Source of the DNA: an uncultured Pseudomonadota bacterium
GTDB taxonomy: Bacteria; Pseudomonadota; Gammaproteobacteria; Ga0077536
Direction: 5' to 3'
Assembly: GCA_902551695.1 (NCBI GenBank)
Contig: CACDEI010000007.1
Location: 1 to 50,749 of the forward strand
DNA: 50,749 nt
The notes under the pieces were generated by a model that searched no databases, was not told the origin of the DNA, and saw only the letters and a program-made list of their open reading frames with translations. The position numbers and the translations under genes are program-made. Within the stretch, counting starts at the first letter, position 1, and every line of letters starts with the position of its first letter. Positions 6,507 through 15,953 of this stretch are shown piece after piece.

Positions 6507-6547
6507 AAGCATCTTTGTTGCACTGCGATACCCTCGAAAGGTTCTCA

Positions 6548-7711
6548 ATGAATACTAAGCCTAAAAATAAGCCGGTTAACCCGTCCTTTTCCTCTGGGCC
6601 TTGCCCTAAATATCCTGGCTGGAATGTGACTGATTTGCAAAGCGCCCTTGTGGGACGTTCTCATCGTTCTGTCGCAGGAAAAGAGAAGCTACGTTACGCT
6701 ATAGAGCTCACAAAAAAGATTCTGCAAATACCCGATGAATATCTTGTGGGGATCGTGCCTGCTTCAGATACAGGAGCGGTAGAAATGGCCTTGTGGAACC
6801 TTCTCGGTTCGAGGCCAGTGGAAGTCCTAGCTTGGGAAAGTTTCGGTAGCGAGTGGGTGCAAGATGTGGTCAGCGCTCTTAAGATAGAAAATGCTCGCAC
6901 CACAATAGCTGACTATGGAAAATTGCCGGCATTGGACGATATTTGCTTTGAGTCTGACCTAGTGTTCGTTTGGAATGGTACTACTTCCGGCGTCAGATTG
7001 CCGGATGGCGATTGGATCTCGTCGGAGCGCACTGGCCTTACTATATGTGATGCTACTTCTGCCGCTTTTGCTATGCGATTGCCCTGGGAAAAGCTTGATG
7101 TGACCACTTTTTCTTGGCAGAAAGTTCTGGGTGGTGAGGCTGCCCACGGCGTGTTAGTAATGTCTCCTCGTGCTATCGATCGATTGGAAAATTACGAACC
7201 ACCATGGCCTTTACCGAAGATTTTTCGGCTTAGTAAATCGGGTGAAGTCAATAAATCTTTGTTCGAGGGGGCGACTATTAACACTCCATCGCTTCTTTGT
7301 GTGGAGGATTATTTGATGGCATTGGAGTGGGCAGAGCAAATTGGTGGTTTGAAGGCTTTGTGCGCGCGAGCGGATAATAACTTGGAAGTTGTTGCAACTT
7401 GGGTTGAATCAACCTCTTGGATTGACTTTTTGGCCGAAAGATTGGAATGTCGCTCTAATACTTCGATATGTCTAAAAATAACTGCGGATTGGTTTTCCGA
7501 TGAATCACCTGATCGGCAGAGAGAAATCACTAAATATATGGTTGGTTTGTTGGAGGAAGAGCGTGTGGCTTTAGATATTGAATCATACAGAAGCGCTCCT
7601 TCCGGGTTGAGAATTTGGGGCGGTGCTACAGTGGAATCTGAAGATATTCAGCTTTTACTACCTTGGCTGGAATGGGCGTATTTAGAGGCTCGGAATAGGT
7701 TTTCCGGGTGA
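6548..7711 (+). CDS. serC: Phosphoserine aminotransferase
   Basis: The protein has 387 residues from ATG 6548, with GAAAGG at 6536-6541 as the ribosome-binding site; a longer TTG start at 6515 lacks one. The enzyme converts 3-phosphohydroxypyruvate and glutamate to phosphoserine and 2-oxoglutarate with PLP. SSGPCPKYPGW at the N-terminus, LVGRSHRS, and the PLP-lysine segment TFSWQKVLGGEAAHG place it in the PSAT subfamily common in alphaproteobacteria and archaea rather than the E. coli SerC form. The gene sits 39 bases upstream of serA, which makes its substrate, so the pair is almost certainly an operon. The function is secure from sequence plus context. Confidence 0.92.
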   Translation: MNTKPKNKPVNPSFSSGPCPKYPGWNVTDLQSALVGRSHRSVAGKEKLRYAIELTKKILQIPDEYLVGIVPASDTGAVEMALWNLLGSRPVEVLAWESFGSEWVQDVVSALKIENARTTIADYGKLPALDDICFESDLVFVWNGTTSGVRLPDGDWISSERTGLTICDATSAAFAMRLPWEKLDVTTFSWQKVLGGEAAHGVLVMSPRAIDRLENYEPPWPLPKIFRLSKSGEVNKSLFEGATINTPSLLCVEDYLMALEWAEQIGGLKALCARADNNLEVVATWVESTSWIDFLAERLECRSNTSICLKITADWFSDESPDRQREITKYMVGLLEEERVALDIESYRSAPSGLRIWGGATVESEDIQLLLPWLEWAYLEARNRFSG

Positions 7712-7750
7712 AAATTAGTATGTTAGTAATTTATAGGATTGTTAAGTCAA

Positions 7751-9334
7751 ATGCATAAAGTTTTTGTTGCGGACAAACTGGCTCCCGAAGGCATAGATGC
7801 CTTAAAGGAATATCCAGAGCTCAATGTGGTGTTTAAGCCAGGGCTATCGGTAGAGGAGGCAAAGGTCGAGGTTGAAAATGCTGACGCAGTGATTGTGCGG
7901 AGTGCTACTAAATTGAAGGGTGAACTTTTGAATTCAGCTAAAAGTTTAAAGGTTATTGGTAGAGCTGGAATAGGAGTCGACAATATAGATGTTGACAGGG
8001 CTACTGAGAAGGGGGTTGTCGTTCTGAATACCCCAGATGCTAATGCTACTACCACTGCTGAACTGGCTATCGCTCATATCTTTTCTCTGAGTAGAAATTT
8101 ACCAGAGGCAGATAGATCAGTCCGAGCGGGGAAATGGGAGCGGAATAAATTTCTGGGTGTAGAACTTTCTGGAAAAACTGTTGGTGTGATCGGTTTTGGT
8201 ACTATAGGGAGACTGGTTGCTGAGAGATGTGCAGGCTTGAAAATGCGCGTTTTAGGATTTGATCCGTTTGTCACGGAAGACACGTTTAAAGAGCATATGG
8301 TAGAAAAGAAGGAACTAGAGGACCTCCTGGAAAACTCAGACTATGTGACCCTCCATTGTCCCGTTACCGATGGGACTCGGCAGATGTTTAATAGTGAGTT
8401 ATTCTCAAAAATGCGAAAAGGCGCTTTTTTGATTAATTGTGCTCGAGGGGAACTGGTTAATGAGGTTGCGTTAGCTGAGGCATTAACATCGGGTGTTTTA
8501 GCAGGCGCTGCAATCGATGTGTTTAATCAGGAGCCACCAACAGAGTGTCCTCTATTAAGCTTGGATAATGTGTATTTTACTCCGCATCTCGGTGCTTCCA
8601 CCCACGAGGCCCAAAGTGCCGTAGGCGTAGAAATTGCTCACAGTATCGCATCCTACCTTATTAGGGGCGAAGTCAGAAATGCGGTAAATGTGCCAAACCT
8701 GGAAACTGATAAACTACAGCGAACCCAACCTTATACAGAGTTGGGGGAGAAACTAGGCCGGTTGATTGGCAGTATGGCAAAAGGCTCAATATCTAGTCTC
8801 GAGGTAGCCATGTTCGGCGATGCGGCTAAATTGGATGCTCAGCAGATTAGCAGTTCTGTTATTATCGGGTTACTCAAGGAGCACCATTCGGTACCCGTAA
8901 ACCAAATAAATGCCCTCTATTTGGCAAGAAGACAAGGTATGCAGGTTAGTGAAATTAGTTCCCTAGATTCAAAAGATTATGTTTCGGTTCTGAGGGTTAC
9001 CGTGACTACGGAGACCGAACAGCTTGTGTTGGAGGGTACTATTTTTGATGGGTTACATCCAAGACTGGTGCGGGTGGGCGATTACGAGATAGAGTCACCG
9101 TTGAAAGGGCATCTCTTATTTAGCTGGCATGCAGATCAGCCTGGGGTAATAGGATCTCTCGGAGAAATTCTTGGAAAATTAGGAATAAATATCTCTAGGA
9201 TGCAAGTAGGAGTGTCCGACAACATGCAACTCGCTATCGCTATTCTGGGCATATCAAAGGGGTTGAGCAAAGACACAATTGAGACCATAGAAAAATTAGA
9301 TGCAGTATCCCGAGCTCTTCAAGTCGAGGTGTAG
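7751..9334 (+). CDS. serA: D-3-phosphoglycerate dehydrogenase
   Basis: The protein has 527 residues from ATG 7751; an in-frame TTG at 7739 abuts the AGGA at 7735-7738 and is unlikely. The enzyme oxidises 3-phosphoglycerate with NAD+ as the first committed step of serine synthesis. It is the long type: a 2-hydroxyacid dehydrogenase body with the Rossmann motif VGVIGFGTIGRLVA, LINCARGELVNE with its conserved Arg, and FTPHLGASTHEAQ with the catalytic His. An intervening domain and a C-terminal ACT domain (LLFSWHADQPGVIGSLGEIL onward) follow, which in related enzymes mediates serine feedback. It lies just downstream of serC and converges on the carboxyltransferase gene with six bases between stop codons. 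Confidence 0.95.
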   Translation: MHKVFVADKLAPEGIDALKEYPELNVVFKPGLSVEEAKVEVENADAVIVRSATKLKGELLNSAKSLKVIGRAGIGVDNIDVDRATEKGVVVLNTPDANATTTAELAIAHIFSLSRNLPEADRSVRAGKWERNKFLGVELSGKTVGVIGFGTIGRLVAERCAGLKMRVLGFDPFVTEDTFKEHMVEKKELEDLLENSDYVTLHCPVTDGTRQMFNSELFSKMRKGAFLINCARGELVNEVALAEALTSGVLAGAAIDVFNQEPPTECPLLSLDNVYFTPHLGASTHEAQSAVGVEIAHSIASYLIRGEVRNAVNVPNLETDKLQRTQPYTELGEKLGRLIGSMAKGSISSLEVAMFGDAAKLDAQQISSSVIIGLLKEHHSVPVNQINALYLARRQGMQVSEISSLDSKDYVSVLRVTVTTETEQLVLEGTIFDGLHPRLVRVGDYEIESPLKGHLLFSWHADQPGVIGSLGEILGKLGINISRMQVGVSDNMQLAIAILGISKGLSKDTIETIEKLDAVSRALQVEV

Positions 9335-9340
9335 ATTTTT

Positions 9341-10948
9341 TTAAAGCCTAAAGACACCATAACCTTGGTTTATGAAAGGCGCATTCATGGAAGCAGATAT
9401 TGATACGCCCAACGCGTTCCTGGTGTCTATCGGATCTATTATGCCATCGTCCCACAACTGCGAAGTTGCGTAGTAAGCGGACATTTGGTGTTGGTAAGCT
9501 TCTAGGGTGTCTGCATACACCTTTTCTAAAACTTTTGCGTCGATTTTTGCATTCTGTTTCTTAAGTTGCTTCTCTTTTACCTCTACCAACGTTTTAGCTG
9601 CTTGTTCACCGCCCATTATGCCTATCTGGTGGTTTGGCCAGGAAAACAAAAAGCGACTATCATAAGCTCTTCCACACATCCCATAATTTCCCGCACCAAA
9701 AGAGCCTGCACACATTACAGTGAACTTCGGCACGTGAGAACCGACTTGCGCCATTAACATCTTCGCGCCATCTTTAGTGATTCCATTAGCTTCATAGTCT
9801 TTGCCAACCATAAAACCAGTTATATTTTGGAGGAAAATCATGGGGGTTTCATTTTGATTGCATAGCTCCATAAAATGCGCGGCTTTCAAAGTACTGTCAT
9901 TAAAGAGTACGCCATTATTTGCGAGTATCCCCACTTCATAACCCCATAGCCTGGCATACCCGCAAATTATAGTTTTACCATAGTCAGGTTGATACTCGTG
10001 AAAATCGCTCCTATCTACTAGACGCGCTATGACCTCTTTCATGTCAAACTGTCGTTTAATATCGTCTGGAATTATTCCGTATAGTTCGTCAGTATCGTAG
10101 TACGGCACTTCTGGTTCTGCCACTGGCTCTTTATACTTTGGTGTCTTAGTCCAATGGGAGACGATTTCACGTCCTATCCTGATAGCGTCCTCTTCAGAAT
10201 CCGCGGCATAATCACAAGTTCCACTTACTTGTGTATGTAAATTGGCACCGCCTAGTTCATCGGCTGTAACAACTTCGCCCGTCGCGGCTTTAACCAATGG
10301 GGGGCCCGCTAAGAATACAGCACCAGTACCTCGAACTATGACAGAGTAGTCTGAAAGAGCAGGGACATAGGCCCCACCAGCTGTACAATGCCCAAAAACT
10401 AGGGCTAATTGTTTAACATTCATTTTAGAAAGTACACACTGATTTCGGAACATTCTACCGGCCATATACTTGTCCGGAAAAAGTTCTGATTGCAGCGGCA
10501 GGAAACCCCCAGCACTGTCGCAAAGATGAATGACTGGGAGCCTATTTTCTATGGCGATATCGAGGCAGCGTACTATTTTTTTTACGGTTAGAGGGTACCA
10601 AGCTCCGCCTTTTACACTCGAATCGTTGGCATGGATGATGACTTCCTGTCCTTGTACCACCCCTATTCCGGTAATACAGCTAGCGGACGGTGAATCTCCA
10701 TCGTAATCCATATTAGCGGCTAAAGTTGAAAATTCTAAAAACGGTGTCCCCGGGTCTAAAAGGAGTTCAAGCCTTTGCCTCGGGAGCATTTTGTTCTGAC
10801 TAGCCAACCGCTGCCGATCTTTTTCTGGCCTTTGGTACCTTGCTTCATCCTGTTTCTCTTTAAGTTCTTTAACTAGTGTTTGATTGTGTTTATAAAAGCG
10901 TTTGAAATCTGCAGAGTTCGTTTTTAGGTTAGAACTTATTATAGCCAA
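9341..10948 (-). CDS. Acyl-CoA carboxylase, carboxyltransferase (beta) subunit, MccB-like
   Basis: The protein has 535 residues when started at TTG 10948, which follows GGAGGAG at about the right distance and lies one base after the stop of the biotin-carrier gene; this equals the usual MCC beta length. The two crotonase-like halves are clear. HCTAGGAYVPALSDYS contributes to the N-terminal acyl-CoA pocket, and FLQNITGFMVGKDYE together with AGSFGAGNYGMCGRAY marks the C-terminal half. These motifs favour methylcrotonyl- or geranyl-CoA carboxylase-type enzymes over propionyl-CoA carboxylase. It would transfer carboxyl from biotin on the neighbouring carrier to an acyl-CoA. No leucine-degradation genes (isovaleryl-CoA dehydrogenase, HMG-CoA lyase) are next to it, so the acyl-CoA substrate is undetermined. 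Confidence 0.88.
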   Translation of the reverse strand: MAIISSNLKTNSADFKRFYKHNQTLVKELKEKQDEARYQRPEKDRQRLASQNKMLPRQRLELLLDPGTPFLEFSTLAANMDYDGDSPSASCITGIGVVQGQEVIIHANDSSVKGGAWYPLTVKKIVRCLDIAIENRLPVIHLCDSAGGFLPLQSELFPDKYMAGRMFRNQCVLSKMNVKQLALVFGHCTAGGAYVPALSDYSVIVRGTGAVFLAGPPLVKAATGEVVTADELGGANLHTQVSGTCDYAADSEEDAIRIGREIVSHWTKTPKYKEPVAEPEVPYYDTDELYGIIPDDIKRQFDMKEVIARLVDRSDFHEYQPDYGKTIICGYARLWGYEVGILANNGVLFNDSTLKAAHFMELCNQNETPMIFLQNITGFMVGKDYEANGITKDGAKMLMAQVGSHVPKFTVMCAGSFGAGNYGMCGRAYDSRFLFSWPNHQIGIMGGEQAAKTLVEVKEKQLKKQNAKIDAKVLEKVYADTLEAYQHQMSAYYATSQLWDDGIIDPIDTRNALGVSISASMNAPFINQGYGVFRL

Positions 10949-10949
10949 C

Positions 10950-11441
10950 TTACATCTCCTCCAAAGAGGCCAGTACCGCCCCTTTTTCAAAAGTCTCGTT
11001 CTTTTTAAAATAAATTTTTCCAATAACGGCATCCCTTGGAGCGATTATGTTTGTTTGCATTTTCATGGATTCAGTGGAGAGAATTACGTCTCCCTCCTTG
11101 ACTTTATCCCCTTCCTTAACGATGACTTCTATCACTATACCGGGCATCGATGCGTTGATATTATTTGCAGACTGGTCTTCTTTCGATTGCGCCGTGTCAT
11201 TTTTCTTTTTTTCCAAATGATAGGTCTCAGATTCCACCTTCAGGTATACATCCTTCTTTGTGTCAGCGGAAAACGTCTTATAGACTTTATTGTTTATTTT
11301 TAAAGTAGTGGAAGCATCGGTCGTTGTTCGGCTTATTATATAGCGGGTCCCATTCACCATCATGACCATCTCATTCTTCAAAGATAAGATTTCGACAGTG
11401 TATACATCCTCATCAATTAGGAATTCTTTACGAAAGGCCAT
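10950..11441 (-). CDS. Biotin carrier protein of acyl-CoA carboxylase, stand-alone BT + BCCP domains
   Basis: The protein has 163 residues from ATG 11441, which has GGAGA eight bases upstream and sits one base after the biotin carboxylase stop. Residues 1-80 form a beta-rich region like the BT domain that joins biotin carboxylase to carrier in MCC/PCC alpha subunits. Residues 81-95 are a short polar linker and 96-163 are the biotinyl domain, with the modification site ESMKMQT (Lys127); Ser replaces the commoner Ala of AMKM. The protein therefore looks like the C-terminal third of a classical alpha subunit encoded as its own gene. It ends one base before the carboxyltransferase start, so stoichiometric co-translation is likely. 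Confidence 0.88.
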   Translation of the reverse strand: MAFRKEFLIDEDVYTVEILSLKNEMVMMVNGTRYIISRTTTDASTTLKINNKVYKTFSADTKKDVYLKVESETYHLEKKKNDTAQSKEDQSANNINASMPGIVIEVIVKEGDKVKEGDVILSTESMKMQTNIIAPRDAVIGKIYFKKNETFEKGAVLASLEEM

Positions 11442-11442
11442 G

Positions 11443-12915
11443 CTAATTTCTCCATGAACCAATAGAACGATGTAAGTTTGATGAATTTTTCATAAAATGT
11501 CTTACCTCAGGATCTTCCATAGTAGCCACAATTGCTGCTATATCTTTATTTTCTTCGTAAATAGAAGAATTGGTTAAAGCGTCTTGGTTTTCGCTAATAA
11601 AGCCGGTGTGTAGTAAGCCTTCAGAAAAAGCCTCACTGCGAAAAATAGCTAGTAAGAAATTTAGATTAGTATCGATTCCAAGGATATGCATCTTTCCAGC
11701 GGATTCAATGCTTTTTTGAATTGCGGCGTTCCGGTCTGTGCCATAACAAATCAATTTGCCAATCATCGAATCAAAATCAGAGGTAATTTCTTGCCCTTCG
11801 GAAAACCCGATATCGTATCGAGTGTTTTCAATTGACGGTAGGTGGCAGCTCTGGACTTTTCCAGTCGCCGGGGCGAAATTGTTATTTGGATCTTCGCAAC
11901 ATATTCGACTCTCAATCGCGTGCCCTCTTTGGATAATCTCATTTTGAGAATGAGACAATTTTCCGTTCGCGGCAATCAGGAGCTGTTCTCTCACGAGGTC
12001 TAGGTCGCAGACTAGTTCAGTTACAGGGTGCTCAACTTGAAGTCGAGTATTCATTTCAAGAAAGTAATATTGATTATCTTCTGAAACGATGAATTCAACG
12101 GTTCCAGCATTTCTATAATTCAGGCTTTTTGCTAGTTCACAAGCGGATACACATATTTTTTCTCTAAGGCTTGTATCCAGGTTAGGTGCAGGGCTTTCTT
12201 CGATTATTTTCTGAAATCGTCGTTGGATAGAGCATTCTCTTTCAAATAAATGTATGACATCTCCATTGCCATCGCCCAAGATTTGCACCTCAATGTGTCG
12301 AGGTTTTGAAATATAAGTCTCAGCATAAATTCTATTATCACCAAAATAACGTTCAGCCTCTCCGCGAGAAAGCTGAATCTTTTCCCCAAGTTCTCCAGGG
12401 CTGTTTACGATTTGCATGCCTTTTCCTCCACCTCCTGCTGATGCTTTCAACAAAAGTGGGTATCCTATTTTTCTACATTCTTCAACAAACGCTTGCTCGT
12501 CGTCTAAATACTCGGCGCTGGCGGACACAGGCACATCGGCTTTTATAGCTACTTCTCGAGAACGAATCTTGTCTCCCAAAAGTGTCATTGAAGCACCGGT
12601 AGGTCCAATAAAGTTAATACCCTCTTCTTCGACGCGTTGCGCAAAAATATGGTTTTCGGAGAGAAATCCATAGCCCGGGTGTATGGACTCTATTTCAGCG
12701 TTTTTTGCGATCTTTAATATCTGATCTATATCAAGGTAGGCGGCTACCGGAACCTCGGACTCTACTTCATGGCAAAGATCAGCTAAGGCTACATGGGGAG
12801 CATTCCTGTCAGCATGATGAAAAATGGCGTGGGTTTCTATCCCCATATCTTGAGCTGTTCTAATTATACGGCAGGCAATTTCACCACGATTTGCGACTAG
12901 AATATTTTTGAACAT
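11443..12915 (-). CDS. Acyl-CoA carboxylase, biotin carboxylase subunit (AccC-like)
   Basis: This 490-residue ATP-grasp enzyme carboxylates biotin using bicarbonate and ATP. FKNILVANRGEIACRIIRTA at the start, KASAGGGGKGM (ATP-binding glycine loop), HIEVQILGD, FLEMNTRLQVEHPVTE and the catalytic-site pattern RGHAIESRI are all present. It is longer than housekeeping AccC (about 450) but stops before any carrier domain, which the next gene supplies after a one-base gap. Upstream, 45 bases separate it from the VWA-protein gene; that gap contains TATAAT on the minus strand (12947-12952) without a convincing -35, so a minor internal promoter is possible. The enzymatic role is sure; the acyl-CoA substrate is not. 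Confidence 0.9.
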   Translation of the reverse strand: MFKNILVANRGEIACRIIRTAQDMGIETHAIFHHADRNAPHVALADLCHEVESEVPVAAYLDIDQILKIAKNAEIESIHPGYGFLSENHIFAQRVEEEGINFIGPTGASMTLLGDKIRSREVAIKADVPVSASAEYLDDEQAFVEECRKIGYPLLLKASAGGGGKGMQIVNSPGELGEKIQLSRGEAERYFGDNRIYAETYISKPRHIEVQILGDGNGDVIHLFERECSIQRRFQKIIEESPAPNLDTSLREKICVSACELAKSLNYRNAGTVEFIVSEDNQYYFLEMNTRLQVEHPVTELVCDLDLVREQLLIAANGKLSHSQNEIIQRGHAIESRICCEDPNNNFAPATGKVQSCHLPSIENTRYDIGFSEGQEITSDFDSMIGKLICYGTDRNAAIQKSIESAGKMHILGIDTNLNFLLAIFRSEAFSEGLLHTGFISENQDALTNSSIYEENKDIAAIVATMEDPEVRHFMKNSSNLHRSIGSWRN

Positions 12916-12960: not shown

Positions 12961-15141
12961 CTATGTAGTGAGTCTTCGATAGATGTCGGCCACTTTATAA
13001 GGAAGCTTTGGTACTTCATCAATTACCGCATAATTTACTTTACCATACATATAAGGGAGGTAGTCTTGTGCCTCGTTGTCAATGGTGATGCAGAAAGGGT
13101 GAATCCCAGCTTGCTTAATTTCTAGTAACGCGTGTCTAGTGTCCTCGATCCCATACTTTCCTTTGTAGCCACCATAATCTTCTGGTCGTCCATCAGATAA
13201 TGTTATAAGGAGTTTGGTTCTAGCTTGTGTCTGATTAAGGAGATGACCAAGGTGGCGAATTGCTACCCCCATCCTAGTATAGGCTTTTGGTCTTATGCCG
13301 CTTATTCTTTGTTTAACCTCATCAGAATATTTCTGTCCGAACTCTTTAATTTTATACACCTCACACCTTTTGTTGGTTCTTCCCGAGAAGCCGTAGATTG
13401 CGTATCGGTCTCCCAATAACTCCAGTGCCTCGCATAAGAGAACCAAGGATTCTCGCTCCGCGTCATTAACCCAGCCTAGAGTGGAACCACTCATATCTAT
13501 CATAAACATAACAGCTATGTTTCGCTCTTTGTTTCGATATCGAGTATATAAGTATTCGCTGGTTTCATTACCGCTGACCAAATCTGCGAATGAATCGATC
13601 ACTGCGTCCAAGTCAATACCATCGCCATCTAGCTGTCTCCGCTGCAGTCGGTTTTCTCCCAAGATTGCTTCGAAAGTACGTTTGATGGATTTCAATATAC
13701 CTTTATATTTTATCAGAGTTTCATCAACGAACTCGCTTTCAGCTAATGGGATACTAAGTTCTCTTAAAGAGCAAAACCTCTGTCGGAAACGTTGCCTAGT
13801 GCAATCCCACTCATCATACCTGAATATTTCCCCATCCTCACCGTCACTGGCAACATCGTTTTCGTCTGTTTCAGTCTGTTCTGTTAGTTTGTCGGAATAC
13901 TCACCATTTTCGTTTGGCTCCATATAATCTTCAGGGATTTCGCCCAAATCTTGCATGATAGAGCCGAGGAGGTCTTGCAAGTGCTCCGGTATGTTAATAA
14001 TTTCACCGTCCAAGCTCATTTGGAATTTTGTGTCTCCTGCTCCGCCGTCCTCATCTTCAATCAACTCTAGTTCTATTTTTTTTGATGCATCTTCAGTTCC
14101 TTCTGTAAGAGAGTTCTCGTCATCTATTAAGTCCTGCAGAGCACTTTGGAACTCTTCCTTTTCTCTTTCAATTCGCTCGGACAAGATCTCATAGACCCTG
14201 TTTACGTGCATCTCGCCTTGATAGGGCTGTAGGGGAGGAAGAACAATATCTTCTGCAAATTCATCTACTAGTTCGAGGCTGTCTAAGGCTTTGGCTCCAG
14301 GTCTTTGTAGCCTTGCAGCCCGGCTCTTCCAATCGTCCCATATTTTTTTCCCTTCAGTTTCTTCACTATCCATCGCGCGAAACTGTCGATAGAGTCCCGG
14401 CAGATCTCGCTCTATTTGAGCCTCCAATCGAATGCACTCAAGGCGATTAAACTTTGCCAAGCGTTGGTTCGTATCTGACGTTTTTAAAATTTTTTCTACA
14501 ACCTTGCTTCGCCAAGTTCCGTACCAGGTTTGCGCCCACAAATGGGTGGCAGTTAGCTTGTATAGCGAGAAATTTTTGTCCGCCACGGGAAATAGGTCGA
14601 AAGAGTCTGGCAGATAAAGGGATTCTGTATCGGTGAAGCTCTCTGAGTCCACGGCTAGTTTTAATTCTCGACCTCCTAATCCAGTGACAAAGTTCCGGAT
14701 AAAGGTACTCGCTTCGTCGAAGTCGCATCGAATACCACGGTTGGAGTATTCTTCAGCGTACTGTTCGACTTGCTCGATAATTTCAACAGCAGAACCAAGG
14801 CCTTTGTTGTCATACATAGTTATTGCGTTATCCACCCATTGCTGTACACCCTTACTTGCCATCAGTGAAAAGGCTTTTGGCGCTTGTGTCACAAAGCTTT
14901 TTAGTAATTCATCGTTCGTCTCAGACAATGAGCGACATTGCTCGAAAAGGAACTGTTGATCTTCAGGGGTGAGCTCCGCTATCTCTGACACCAAGGTATC
15001 TATGTTTGTTAAATTGACAGCAGACTCTCCAGAAGCACCCTCGAGATCTTTCTGAACTCGGACGCGGTTTAGAAAATTCTGTTTGGAATTGTCAATCACT
15101 TTTTTGAAACAATGGTAGTTATTATTATTTTTAGTGTTCAA
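12961..15141 (-). CDS. VWA-domain protein of the NorD/CbbO family (partner of a MoxR AAA+ ATPase)
   Basis: The protein has 726 residues from TTG 15141, overlapping the upstream ATPase stop in TTGA. The N-terminal 300 residues are helical. Residues about 325-440 are strongly acidic, and the C-terminal third is a von Willebrand factor A domain with an intact MIDAS (D549-M-S551-G-S553). DGRPEDYGGYKGKYGIEDT near the C-terminus is diagnostic of NorD/CbbO proteins. In characterised systems such proteins pair with CbbQ or NorQ ATPases to activate Rubisco or insert metal into nitric oxide reductase. Neither target is encoded here; the gene instead leads into a biotin-dependent carboxylase. I infer a chaperone or activase adaptor whose client may be that carboxylase. 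Confidence 0.85.
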   Translation of the reverse strand: MNTKNNNNYHCFKKVIDNSKQNFLNRVRVQKDLEGASGESAVNLTNIDTLVSEIAELTPEDQQFLFEQCRSLSETNDELLKSFVTQAPKAFSLMASKGVQQWVDNAITMYDNKGLGSAVEIIEQVEQYAEEYSNRGIRCDFDEASTFIRNFVTGLGGRELKLAVDSESFTDTESLYLPDSFDLFPVADKNFSLYKLTATHLWAQTWYGTWRSKVVEKILKTSDTNQRLAKFNRLECIRLEAQIERDLPGLYRQFRAMDSEETEGKKIWDDWKSRAARLQRPGAKALDSLELVDEFAEDIVLPPLQPYQGEMHVNRVYEILSERIEREKEEFQSALQDLIDDENSLTEGTEDASKKIELELIEDEDGGAGDTKFQMSLDGEIINIPEHLQDLLGSIMQDLGEIPEDYMEPNENGEYSDKLTEQTETDENDVASDGEDGEIFRYDEWDCTRQRFRQRFCSLRELSIPLAESEFVDETLIKYKGILKSIKRTFEAILGENRLQRRQLDGDGIDLDAVIDSFADLVSGNETSEYLYTRYRNKERNIAVMFMIDMSGSTLGWVNDAERESLVLLCEALELLGDRYAIYGFSGRTNKRCEVYKIKEFGQKYSDEVKQRISGIRPKAYTRMGVAIRHLGHLLNQTQARTKLLITLSDGRPEDYGGYKGKYGIEDTRHALLEIKQAGIHPFCITIDNEAQDYLPYMYGKVNYAVIDEVPKLPYKVADIYRRLTT

Positions 15142-15953
15142 AAAATTGAACGACTTAACTCGTGGACGGCTTGTAACATATCCGGATCGTCCGTAAGAGC
15201 ATGGGCAATAGCCGTGTCGGTTGCAACTACAGGTTTTATCCCGTCTTGGATAAGCTTGCCGGCGTTCACCAGAAGCCTTGTGCTGGCTCCTTCATCTAAT
15301 CCGCTACCTTTCAAATTCCTGGTCATCCTGCCGAATTTGACGATTTTTTCGCCCAGCTTTTTATCTACCTGACTCTCCTGCAAAATTATTTTTAGCTCTG
15401 TGTCGGAGTCGGGGTAAGTAAATTCGATCGCTACAAAACGTTGGCGGGTGCTTTGCTTGAGGTCTTTCAGAACGCTCTGGTATCCTGGGTTGTATGAAAT
15501 AGCTAGGCAAAACTCGGGTGGGGCTTGCATTAATTCCCCTAGCTTTTCAATTGGCAAAATTCTTCGGTCGTCACAAAGGGGGTGTATCACTACAGAGGTG
15601 TCTTTTCTAGCTTCGACTACTTCGTCTAGATAGCAGATACTTCCATTTCTAACCGCGTCTGTCAGAGGCCCATCAACCCAAACCGTCTGTCCGCCTTTAA
15701 CCAAATATCTGCCAATCAAATCTGAAGCGGTTAAATCATCATGACAGGCTACGGTTACCATAGGGCGTTGCAGTTTCCACGCCATATACTCAATAAAACG
15801 GGTTTTACCGCAACCAGTTGGGCCTTTCAGCAGTATTGGCAGGTGGTTGTTATAGGCTGCTGAAAAGACATCTACCTCGTCGTTAATAGCTTCATAATAT
15901 GGTTCTTTTTCAACAAAGTGCTGGCTCGTTTTTATGGTTTCTTCCACCGGCAT
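15138..15953 (-). CDS. MoxR-family AAA+ ATPase, CbbQ/NirQ/NorQ type
   Basis: The protein has 271 residues from ATG 15953, preceded by AGGAG. Walker A is GPTGCGKT (residues 44-51) and Walker B is ICYLDEV with Asp110 and Glu111. CHDDLTASDLIGRY and AISYNPGYQS are characteristic of the CbbQ/NorQ branch, and the conserved arginine-rich STRQRF follows. These ATPases form hexameric rings that remodel a client through a VWA partner, here the directly overlapping downstream gene. It lies 50 bases downstream of an SDR gene on the same strand. The family is secure. The client is unknown: no Rubisco or NO reductase gene is in the window. Confidence 0.9.
   Translation of the reverse strand: MPVEETIKTSQHFVEKEPYYEAINDEVDVFSAAYNNHLPILLKGPTGCGKTRFIEYMAWKLQRPMVTVACHDDLTASDLIGRYLVKGGQTVWVDGPLTDAVRNGSICYLDEVVEARKDTSVVIHPLCDDRRILPIEKLGELMQAPPEFCLAISYNPGYQSVLKDLKQSTRQRFVAIEFTYPDSDTELKIILQESQVDKKLGEKIVKFGRMTRNLKGSGLDEGASTRLLVNAGKLIQDGIKPVVATDTAIAHALTDDPDMLQAVHELSRSIF

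What the first reader, a model, noticed from the sequence alone, without database searches (positions are those of the whole stretch)
10949..12915. Carboxylase alpha subunit split into two genes with single-base junctions
MCC-like carboxylases normally fuse biotin carboxylase, BT domain and biotin carrier. Here the biotin carboxylase ends before the BT domain, which begins a new 163-residue protein. Stop and start are one base apart at both the BC/BCCP and BCCP/CT borders. The biotin site reads SMKM rather than AMKM. This looks like gene fission, or an ancestral unfused form, kept in strict translational coupling.
Basis: partly seen in the sequence, partly recalled or inferred. Interest (0 to 1): 0.5.

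Follow-up and report, generated by a model that had tools for sequence, protein, structure and literature searches.

The report
Three-piece carboxylase sharing one split domain
A marine bacterium makes as two separate proteins what is usually one large carboxylase chain; the cut falls inside a connector domain, is shared by a broad family of bacteria, and in one close relative the two pieces have been joined again.

Summary
The split is real and no assembly error: 28 of 29 fetched family loci have it, one of the same genus 90% identical. Three corrections. (1) The break is not before the BT domain but inside it: the biotin carboxylase chain keeps BT helix and hook Trp and ends in W-R-N; the 163-residue chain begins with the 8-stranded BT barrel. 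The domain is probably rebuilt between two chains, as in two-subunit pyruvate carboxylase. (2) It is no recently cut MCC: both trees give one separate split clade across Alpha-, Beta- and Gammaproteobacteria and Actinomycetota. Its carboxyltransferases carry Ala or Gly where 27 of 27 canonical MCC-type ones carry Phe. AtuA lies next to the genes in 26 of 41 loci, though not in the window's genus. (3) Coupling is not strict, but the terminal Trp-Arg codons supply the next gene's Shine-Dalgarno sequence. One same-genus genome carries the operon re-fused at the same place. New variant of a known kind; substrate and assembly are untested.

The parts
11443..12915 (-). Biotin carboxylase subunit, 490 aa: ATP-grasp BC domain (about residues 1-445) plus BT helix and hook
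   Evidence: (Pfam Biotin_carb_N/CPSase_L_D2/Biotin_carb_C)
11446..11580 (-). C-terminal tail of BC (residues 446-490): predicted BT helix (454-467) and hook ending IGSWRN; Trp488 codon at 11452-11454
   Evidence: searches (Trp488 invariant in 35 of 35; aligns with BT helix/hook of fused alphas); tail pLDDT only 54-73
11450..11453 (-). GGAG in the last BC codons (TGG-AGA), Shine-Dalgarno-like for the BCCP start
   Evidence: sequence; AGR codon excess in relatives
10950..11441 (-). BT-barrel plus biotin carboxyl carrier subunit, 163 aa
   Evidence: Biotin_lipoyl; 8 strands in residues 3-77, then BCCP
11211..11441 (-). N-terminal 8-stranded BT barrel of the BCCP chain (residues 1-77), without the central helix
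   Evidence: sub-threshold Pfam BT hits start at profile positions 36-44
11061..11063 (-). Codon of the predicted biotinyl lysine (Lys127) in ESMKMQ
9341..10948 (-). Carboxyltransferase subunit, 535 aa, TTG start, MCC/GCC superfamily
10460..10462 (-). Ala163 codon, at the position of MCC Phe191 / GCC Gly162 in the acyl pocket
   Evidence: (PMC4673880 passages)
12961..15953 (-). Upstream neighbours on the same strand: CbbQ/NorQ-type AAA+ ATPase and VWA protein, 45 nt before BC; link to the carboxylase not shown

Best explanation
This is a three-subunit biotin-dependent acyl-CoA carboxylase of the MCC/GCC superfamily. The usual alpha chain is encoded as two proteins whose border lies inside the BC-CT interaction (BT) domain. 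The BC chain ends with the BT helix and hook Trp; the BCCP chain starts with the BT barrel. Shown: gene structure, conservation of the break, one clade, pocket residue, AtuA linkage in relatives, and a re-fused orthologue. Inferred: the BC helix threads the barrel of the other chain, so the BT domain is completed in trans, ties BC and biotin carrier together and docks both on the CT hexamer. BC carboxylates biotin with ATP and bicarbonate; CT passes the carboxyl group to the gamma carbon of a beta-methyl-branched unsaturated acyl-CoA, probably bulkier than 3-methylcrotonyl-CoA (isoprenoid type), since Ala replaces the Phe that narrows the MCC pocket. The BCCP start is probably reached by reinitiation from a Shine-Dalgarno sequence inside the last BC codons.
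For: Conserved split in family and genus. Trp488, 2 residues from the end in the window, is invariant in 35 of 35 split BCs and lies 2-3 residues from the end in all split-clade rows except the frameshifted L083. Aligned with fused alphas, the break follows the hook Trp. Models: the BCCP chain has an 8-strand barrel without helix and spans human MCCA 549-717 and M. smegmatis MCC 498-662; the BC chain spans M. smegmatis MCC 7-500 and P. aeruginosa MCC 48-540. Trees: split clade 100/97 (BC), 97/100 (CT). Pocket Ala in 27 of 27 family split CTs aligned (one locus, L019, dropped as cut short), Ala or Gly in 55 of 55 split-clade CTs, Phe in 27 of 27 CTs of L151-L177. AtuA beside BC in 26 of 41 loci. 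Precedent: in two-subunit pyruvate carboxylase the C-terminal BC helix is wrapped by a barrel of other chains and its loss abolishes assembly (PMC5059739 passages). AGR codon in the terminal Arg 13 of 18 against 3.5 expected where the gap is 6 nt or less.
Against: No complex was modelled or measured; assembly in trans is inference. The helix lies in a low-confidence tail (pLDDT 54-73). No Pfam BT model passes its cut-off, and joining the two chains did not raise the score meaningfully. AtuA is absent from the window's genome (71.6% complete), from G001 and G002, and from G004, G012 and G018, so the isoprenoid reading rests on relatives. The window CT keeps the 3-residue insertion typical of MCC and scores closer to MCC than to GCC. 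An HMG-CoA-lyase-like gene is in the genome, which a leucine route would also need. The trees do not fix ancestral versus derived.
Confidence: 0.65

Rival explanations
1. Ancestral unfused form: the clade keeps the three-subunit state from which fused acyl-CoA carboxylases arose.
For: PMC3199775 (passages) proposes a three-subunit ancestor before BC-BCCP fusion. More distant split enzymes (Thaumarchaeota, Chloroflexota, Latescibacterota) end their BC soon after a Trp in the same alignment column, 5 of 6 rows.
Against: In the BC tree the clade sits among fused acyl-CoA carboxylases, next to the fused L187/L190 pair with weak support (80/51); a single ancient fission is as cheap. The same break could reflect a structural constraint.
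Confidence: 0.35
2. One ancient fission at the base of the clade, followed by spread to several phyla.
For: Clade position among fused XCC enzymes; CT tree close to canonical MCC and GCC-like CTs, whose alphas are fused where seen.
Against: Break position is shared with unrelated split lineages; sister group unresolved.
Confidence: 0.5
3. Recent fission of a canonical MCC alpha gene in this lineage.
For: CT is closest in the PDB to MCC beta chains.
Against: Family member G009 carries both a canonical fused MCC-type enzyme and the split one, far apart in the trees; second CTs at 48-54% identity in many relatives.
Confidence: 0.04
4. Ordinary leucine-pathway MCC that merely has a split alpha.
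For: 3-residue insertion kept; the small-genome genera g1 and g3 have only this CT; HMG-CoA-lyase-like gene in G000 and G002.
Against: Pocket Phe replaced by Ala in the whole family; no over-cut-off HMG-CoA lyase in G001, 90% complete, which keeps the operon; AtuA linkage in relatives.
Confidence: 0.3
5. Assembly error, pseudogene or programmed frameshift giving a fused product.
For: None beyond the single-base junctions.
Against: Stop and start conserved in many genomes; the frame of BCCP relative to BC varies with gaps from -16 to 163 nt, which a programmed frameshift would not allow.
Confidence: 0.02

Closest known systems
3-methylcrotonyl-CoA carboxylase (MCC; human, P. aeruginosa, M. smegmatis)
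   Same: CT sequence class, BC, BT and BCCP folds in the same order, 3-residue insertion in CT
   Different: alpha in two chains; pocket Phe191 is Ala; biotin site SMKM; separate clade in both trees
Geranyl-CoA carboxylase (GCC, AtuC/AtuF)
   Same: small residue in the pocket; AtuA and enoyl-CoA hydratase next door in many relatives
   Different: GCC alpha is fused; Gly and no insertion; GCC-like CTs form another clade; no AtuA in the window's genus
Two-subunit pyruvate carboxylase (M. flagellatus)
   Same: C-terminal helix outside the BC domain completes a BT-like barrel made by other chains (PMC5059739 passages)
   Different: there the barrel comes from two CT-BCCP chains; here all 8 strands are predicted in one BCCP chain
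Archaeal three-subunit acetyl-/propionyl-CoA carboxylase
   Same: BC, BCCP and CT as three proteins (PMC3199775 passages); BC of the archaeal row L101 ends soon after an aligned Trp
   Different: L101 BC far away in the tree

Membership tests
MCC | Phe at the position of residue 191 in the CT pocket | tested here: not met
   Ala in window and in 27 of 27 aligned family split CTs; rule from PMC4673880 passages
MCC | 3-residue insertion before that position | tested here: met
MCC | BC-BT-BCCP in one alpha chain | tested here: not met
MCC | activity on 3-methylcrotonyl-CoA | not testable with these tools
   needs purified enzyme
GCC | Gly at the pocket position and no 3-residue insertion | tested here: not met
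   window Ala with insertion; 10 of 55 split-clade CTs do have Gly without insertion
GCC | atu-type operon with AtuA | tested here: not met
   no PF07287 hit in G000, G001, G002; present in relatives
Split bacterial acetyl-CoA carboxylase (AccB/AccC/AccA/AccD) | AccC-type BC without extra C-terminal helix, CT in two subunits | tested here: not met
   45-residue tail, one CT chain; BC tree separate from own AccC-like rows L001/L002
Three-subunit acyl-CoA carboxylase (BC, BCCP, CT separate) | three adjacent genes, one per function | tested here: met
BT domain completed in trans | BC C-terminal helix inside a barrel of another chain | tested here: inconclusive
   parts predicted on separate chains; no complex modelled
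PCC | CT without the extended N-terminal helix | tested here: not met
   CT aligns with the MCC beta 9tps from residue 3 but with PCC beta chains only from about residue 24 on

The most novel reading that the evidence does not exclude
The BT domain of all fused acyl-CoA carboxylases was born by joining two chains at the hook: the helix came with BC, the barrel with BCCP. This clade keeps the pre-fusion, two-chain domain, and the window's genus shows the fusion step happening again, with a split and a re-fused copy at the same locus.
Probability: 0.25. Interest if true: 0.7.

Novelty: new variant of a known kind. Interest (0 to 1): 0.5.

Why it matters
It gives a natural test of how biotin carboxylases are held together: the same operon, at the same place in one genus, exists with the carrier on a separate chain and with it fused. 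It also marks a widespread clade, labelled only generically in records, whose pocket residue and AtuA neighbours point to isoprenoid-type substrates. A published scheme characterises the acyl-CoA carboxylases including MCC, GCC and PCC by a fused BC-BCCP chain plus a CT chain (PMC3199775 passages); this clade does not fit that definition.

Tried and rejected
Assembly error: rejected by G002 and the other family loci. Split acetyl-CoA carboxylase: rejected by tree and by the single CT chain. Programmed frameshift: rejected, since the relative frames vary.

SMKM as an oddity: it is a marker of the clade, not of this genome. 27 of 28 split family relatives have SMKMQ and 1 SMKLQ; f157 and plasmid members have SMKL; fused class members have AMKM in 22 of 24 (the other two read TMKME and VMKKA, the latter perhaps a misplaced motif hit; one row tagged split with AMKME, L141, is cut at a contig end and was not counted). 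The set was chosen by the pattern [IT]ESMKMQ, so its SMKM says nothing and I did not count it.

Pfam on the joined tail plus BCCP chain did not raise the BT score meaningfully. Promoter/terminator scan was uninformative. HMG-CoA lyase as a marker of the leucine route was undecided. The whole-protein Z values come with rmsd 13-18 A because the two domains are turned against each other. Open-frame lengths mislead for L012 and L019 (BCCP frame open upstream by chance; BC is in another frame). In one search the match list was cut, so I give no count of split genomes per class. The AU test that puts G001 inside the split clade gave p 0.02, and G001 has a long BC branch; I rely also on the CT tree and synteny.

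Papers: PMC3199775, PMC4673880 and PMC5059739 read as found passages only; all others seen only in search listings. In those six searches I saw no description of a split MCC/GCC-type enzyme or of a BT domain split this way; absence there is not absence in print.

Full report
What is there. On the minus strand lie, in order, a biotin carboxylase gene (12915-11443, 490 aa), a gene for a 163-aa biotin carrier protein (11441-10950) and a carboxyltransferase gene (10948-9341, 535 aa, TTG start). Pfam finds the three parts of a biotin carboxylase, a biotinyl domain, and a carboxyl transferase.

Not an error. G002, of the same genus, has the same split with 90% (BCCP) and 97% (CT) identity; the contig of the named record L035 (AG-453-E14) bears the match at the same coordinates and is probably the same genome. 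Of 29 relatives whose loci were fetched, all of one family, 28 have separate genes (L030 ends inside BCCP, so its BC is not seen) and one, G001, is fused.

Where the break lies. MCC and GCC alpha chains have a BT domain made of a helix, a hook with a mostly conserved Trp, and a barrel of up to eight strands (PMC4673880 passages). Aligned with fused alphas, the break falls right after the hook Trp. Trp488 is invariant in 35 of 35 split BCs and lies 2-3 residues from the C-terminus in all split-clade rows except L083, whose BC is frameshifted. AlphaFold2 gives the BCCP chain eight strands in residues 3-77 and no helix (pLDDT 84, pTM 0.46), and the BC chain a helix at 454-467 in a tail of lower confidence. 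In structure comparison the BCCP chain spans residues 549-717 of human MCCA (8j78_C, Z 12.2, rmsd 15.7, 159 aligned) and 498-662 of the M. smegmatis MCC (9yx0_A, Z 11.6, rmsd 16.3, 155 aligned). The BC chain spans 7-500 of the same M. smegmatis chain (Z 52.1, rmsd 2.1, 418 aligned) and 48-540 of P. aeruginosa MCC (3u9t_A, Z 52.6, rmsd 4.6, 467 aligned); ranges give first and last aligned residue only. So the two chains tile one fused alpha, with the joint at the hook. Three BT models of Pfam hit BCCP chains weakly, below cut-off, and start only at profile positions 36-44.

How it probably works. In two-subunit pyruvate carboxylase the C-terminal helix of the BC chain is wrapped by strands of other chains into a BT-like domain, and removing or altering the helix stops assembly (PMC5059739 passages). 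By analogy I infer that the BC helix here completes the barrel of the BCCP chain. This is not shown.

Phylogeny. In the BC tree (77 rows) the split enzymes of this kind form one clade with 36 split rows and the fused G001 row (100/97); six more distant split rows fall elsewhere. In the CT tree (72 rows) the same clade is found (97/100), apart from canonical MCC and from GCC-like CTs. Named members include Ferrovibrio, Tistrella, Sulfitobacter, Rhizobium, Cupriavidus, Conexibacter, Patulibacter, Pseudonocardia and Amycolatopsis. Whether the split is ancestral or one ancient fission is open: the sister branch is weak (80/51). Distant split enzymes break near the same Trp, aligned in 5 of 6 rows.

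Re-fusion. G001, same genus, has a 658-aa open frame across BC and BCCP at the same place: RidA, SDR, MoxR-type ATPase and VWA upstream, CT, SerA and PSAT downstream. It is the sister of the window in both trees (BC 98/98, with a long branch; CT 100/98). Holding the split rows together without it is rejected at p 0.02. At the joint there is no stop and no Met: Trp is followed by Gln-Asn-Cys-Val.

Substrate. The CT is closest to MCC beta chains (E about 1e-171), then GCC (5e-137), then PCC (2e-75 or weaker). At the residue that separates MCC (Phe) from GCC (Gly) the window has Ala; I placed that site by counting in the alignment. Counts: Ala in 27 of 27 aligned family split CTs (L019 dropped as cut short); in split-clade CTs 45 Ala and 10 Gly of 55 (L044 and L083 dropped); Phe in 27 of 27 CTs of L151-L177. 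Of 17 further CTs in the stretches, 6 have Phe (two repeat genomes of L151-L177, one, L185, is distant) and 11, all at 43% identity or less, have Gly, Ser or Tyr. AtuA, named for acyclic terpene use, stands before BC in 26 of 41 split loci with enough upstream sequence; that set was picked by an ESMKMQ pattern and holds near-duplicates. AtuA was not found in G000, G001, G002, G004, G012 and G018. So an isoprenoid-type substrate is likely for the clade, less sure for this genus.

Translation. BC-BCCP spacing in the family runs from -16 to 163 nt, so coupling is not strict; the -16 start (L014) and the 56-nt gaps (L019, L026) may be misplaced starts. Where the gap is 6 nt or less, the terminal Arg after the Trp is AGG/AGA in 13 of 18 genes (17 family loci, window included, and L118) against 3.5 expected from the other Arg codons of the same gene; with longer gaps 2 of 10 against 0.3. 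Relatedness was not corrected for, and L031, without a clear start, was left out. TGG-AGG thus writes both Trp-Arg and a GGAGG ribosome site; the window has TGG-AGA.

Biotin site. Ser before Met-Lys is a clade marker: 28 of 28 split family relatives, found by similarity and not by the motif.

Verdict. It is a new variant of a known kind: a three-subunit MCC/GCC-type carboxylase whose BT domain is divided between chains.

Noticed in passing
12961-15953: A CbbQ/NorQ-type AAA+ ATPase and a VWA protein directly upstream of BC on the same strand; the pair is kept near the carboxylase in five loci (L036, L039, L042, L045, L050) and in G001. Possible activator or chelatase pair.
   Followed up: partly
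L179 4786-10040; L195: In two genomes of class family f157 the split operon carries two tandem CT genes, one with Ala and the 3-residue insertion, one with Gly and without it.
   Followed up: no
L095, L107: Latescibacterota and Chitinivibrionia loci have separate BC and BCCP genes with a CT that keeps the MCC Phe: perhaps a second, unrelated split MCC.
   Followed up: no
L083: Cupriavidus sp. UYMMa02A copy has BC and CT each broken into two frames: decay or sequencing error.
   Followed up: no
L037, L047, L068, L071: Records titled Klebsiella pneumoniae or Bifidobacterium breve MAGs; the two placed in trees (L037, L068) group with other Gammaproteobacteria or Actinomycetota of unrelated kinds, so the titles look wrong.
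   Followed up: no
6515-9334: Serine biosynthesis genes (PSAT, SerA) face the operon in the window; in 6 of the 23 loci (L036, L042, L046, L052, L058, L178) both lie downstream, in three others (L039, L041, L043) only SerA is seen.
   Followed up: partly
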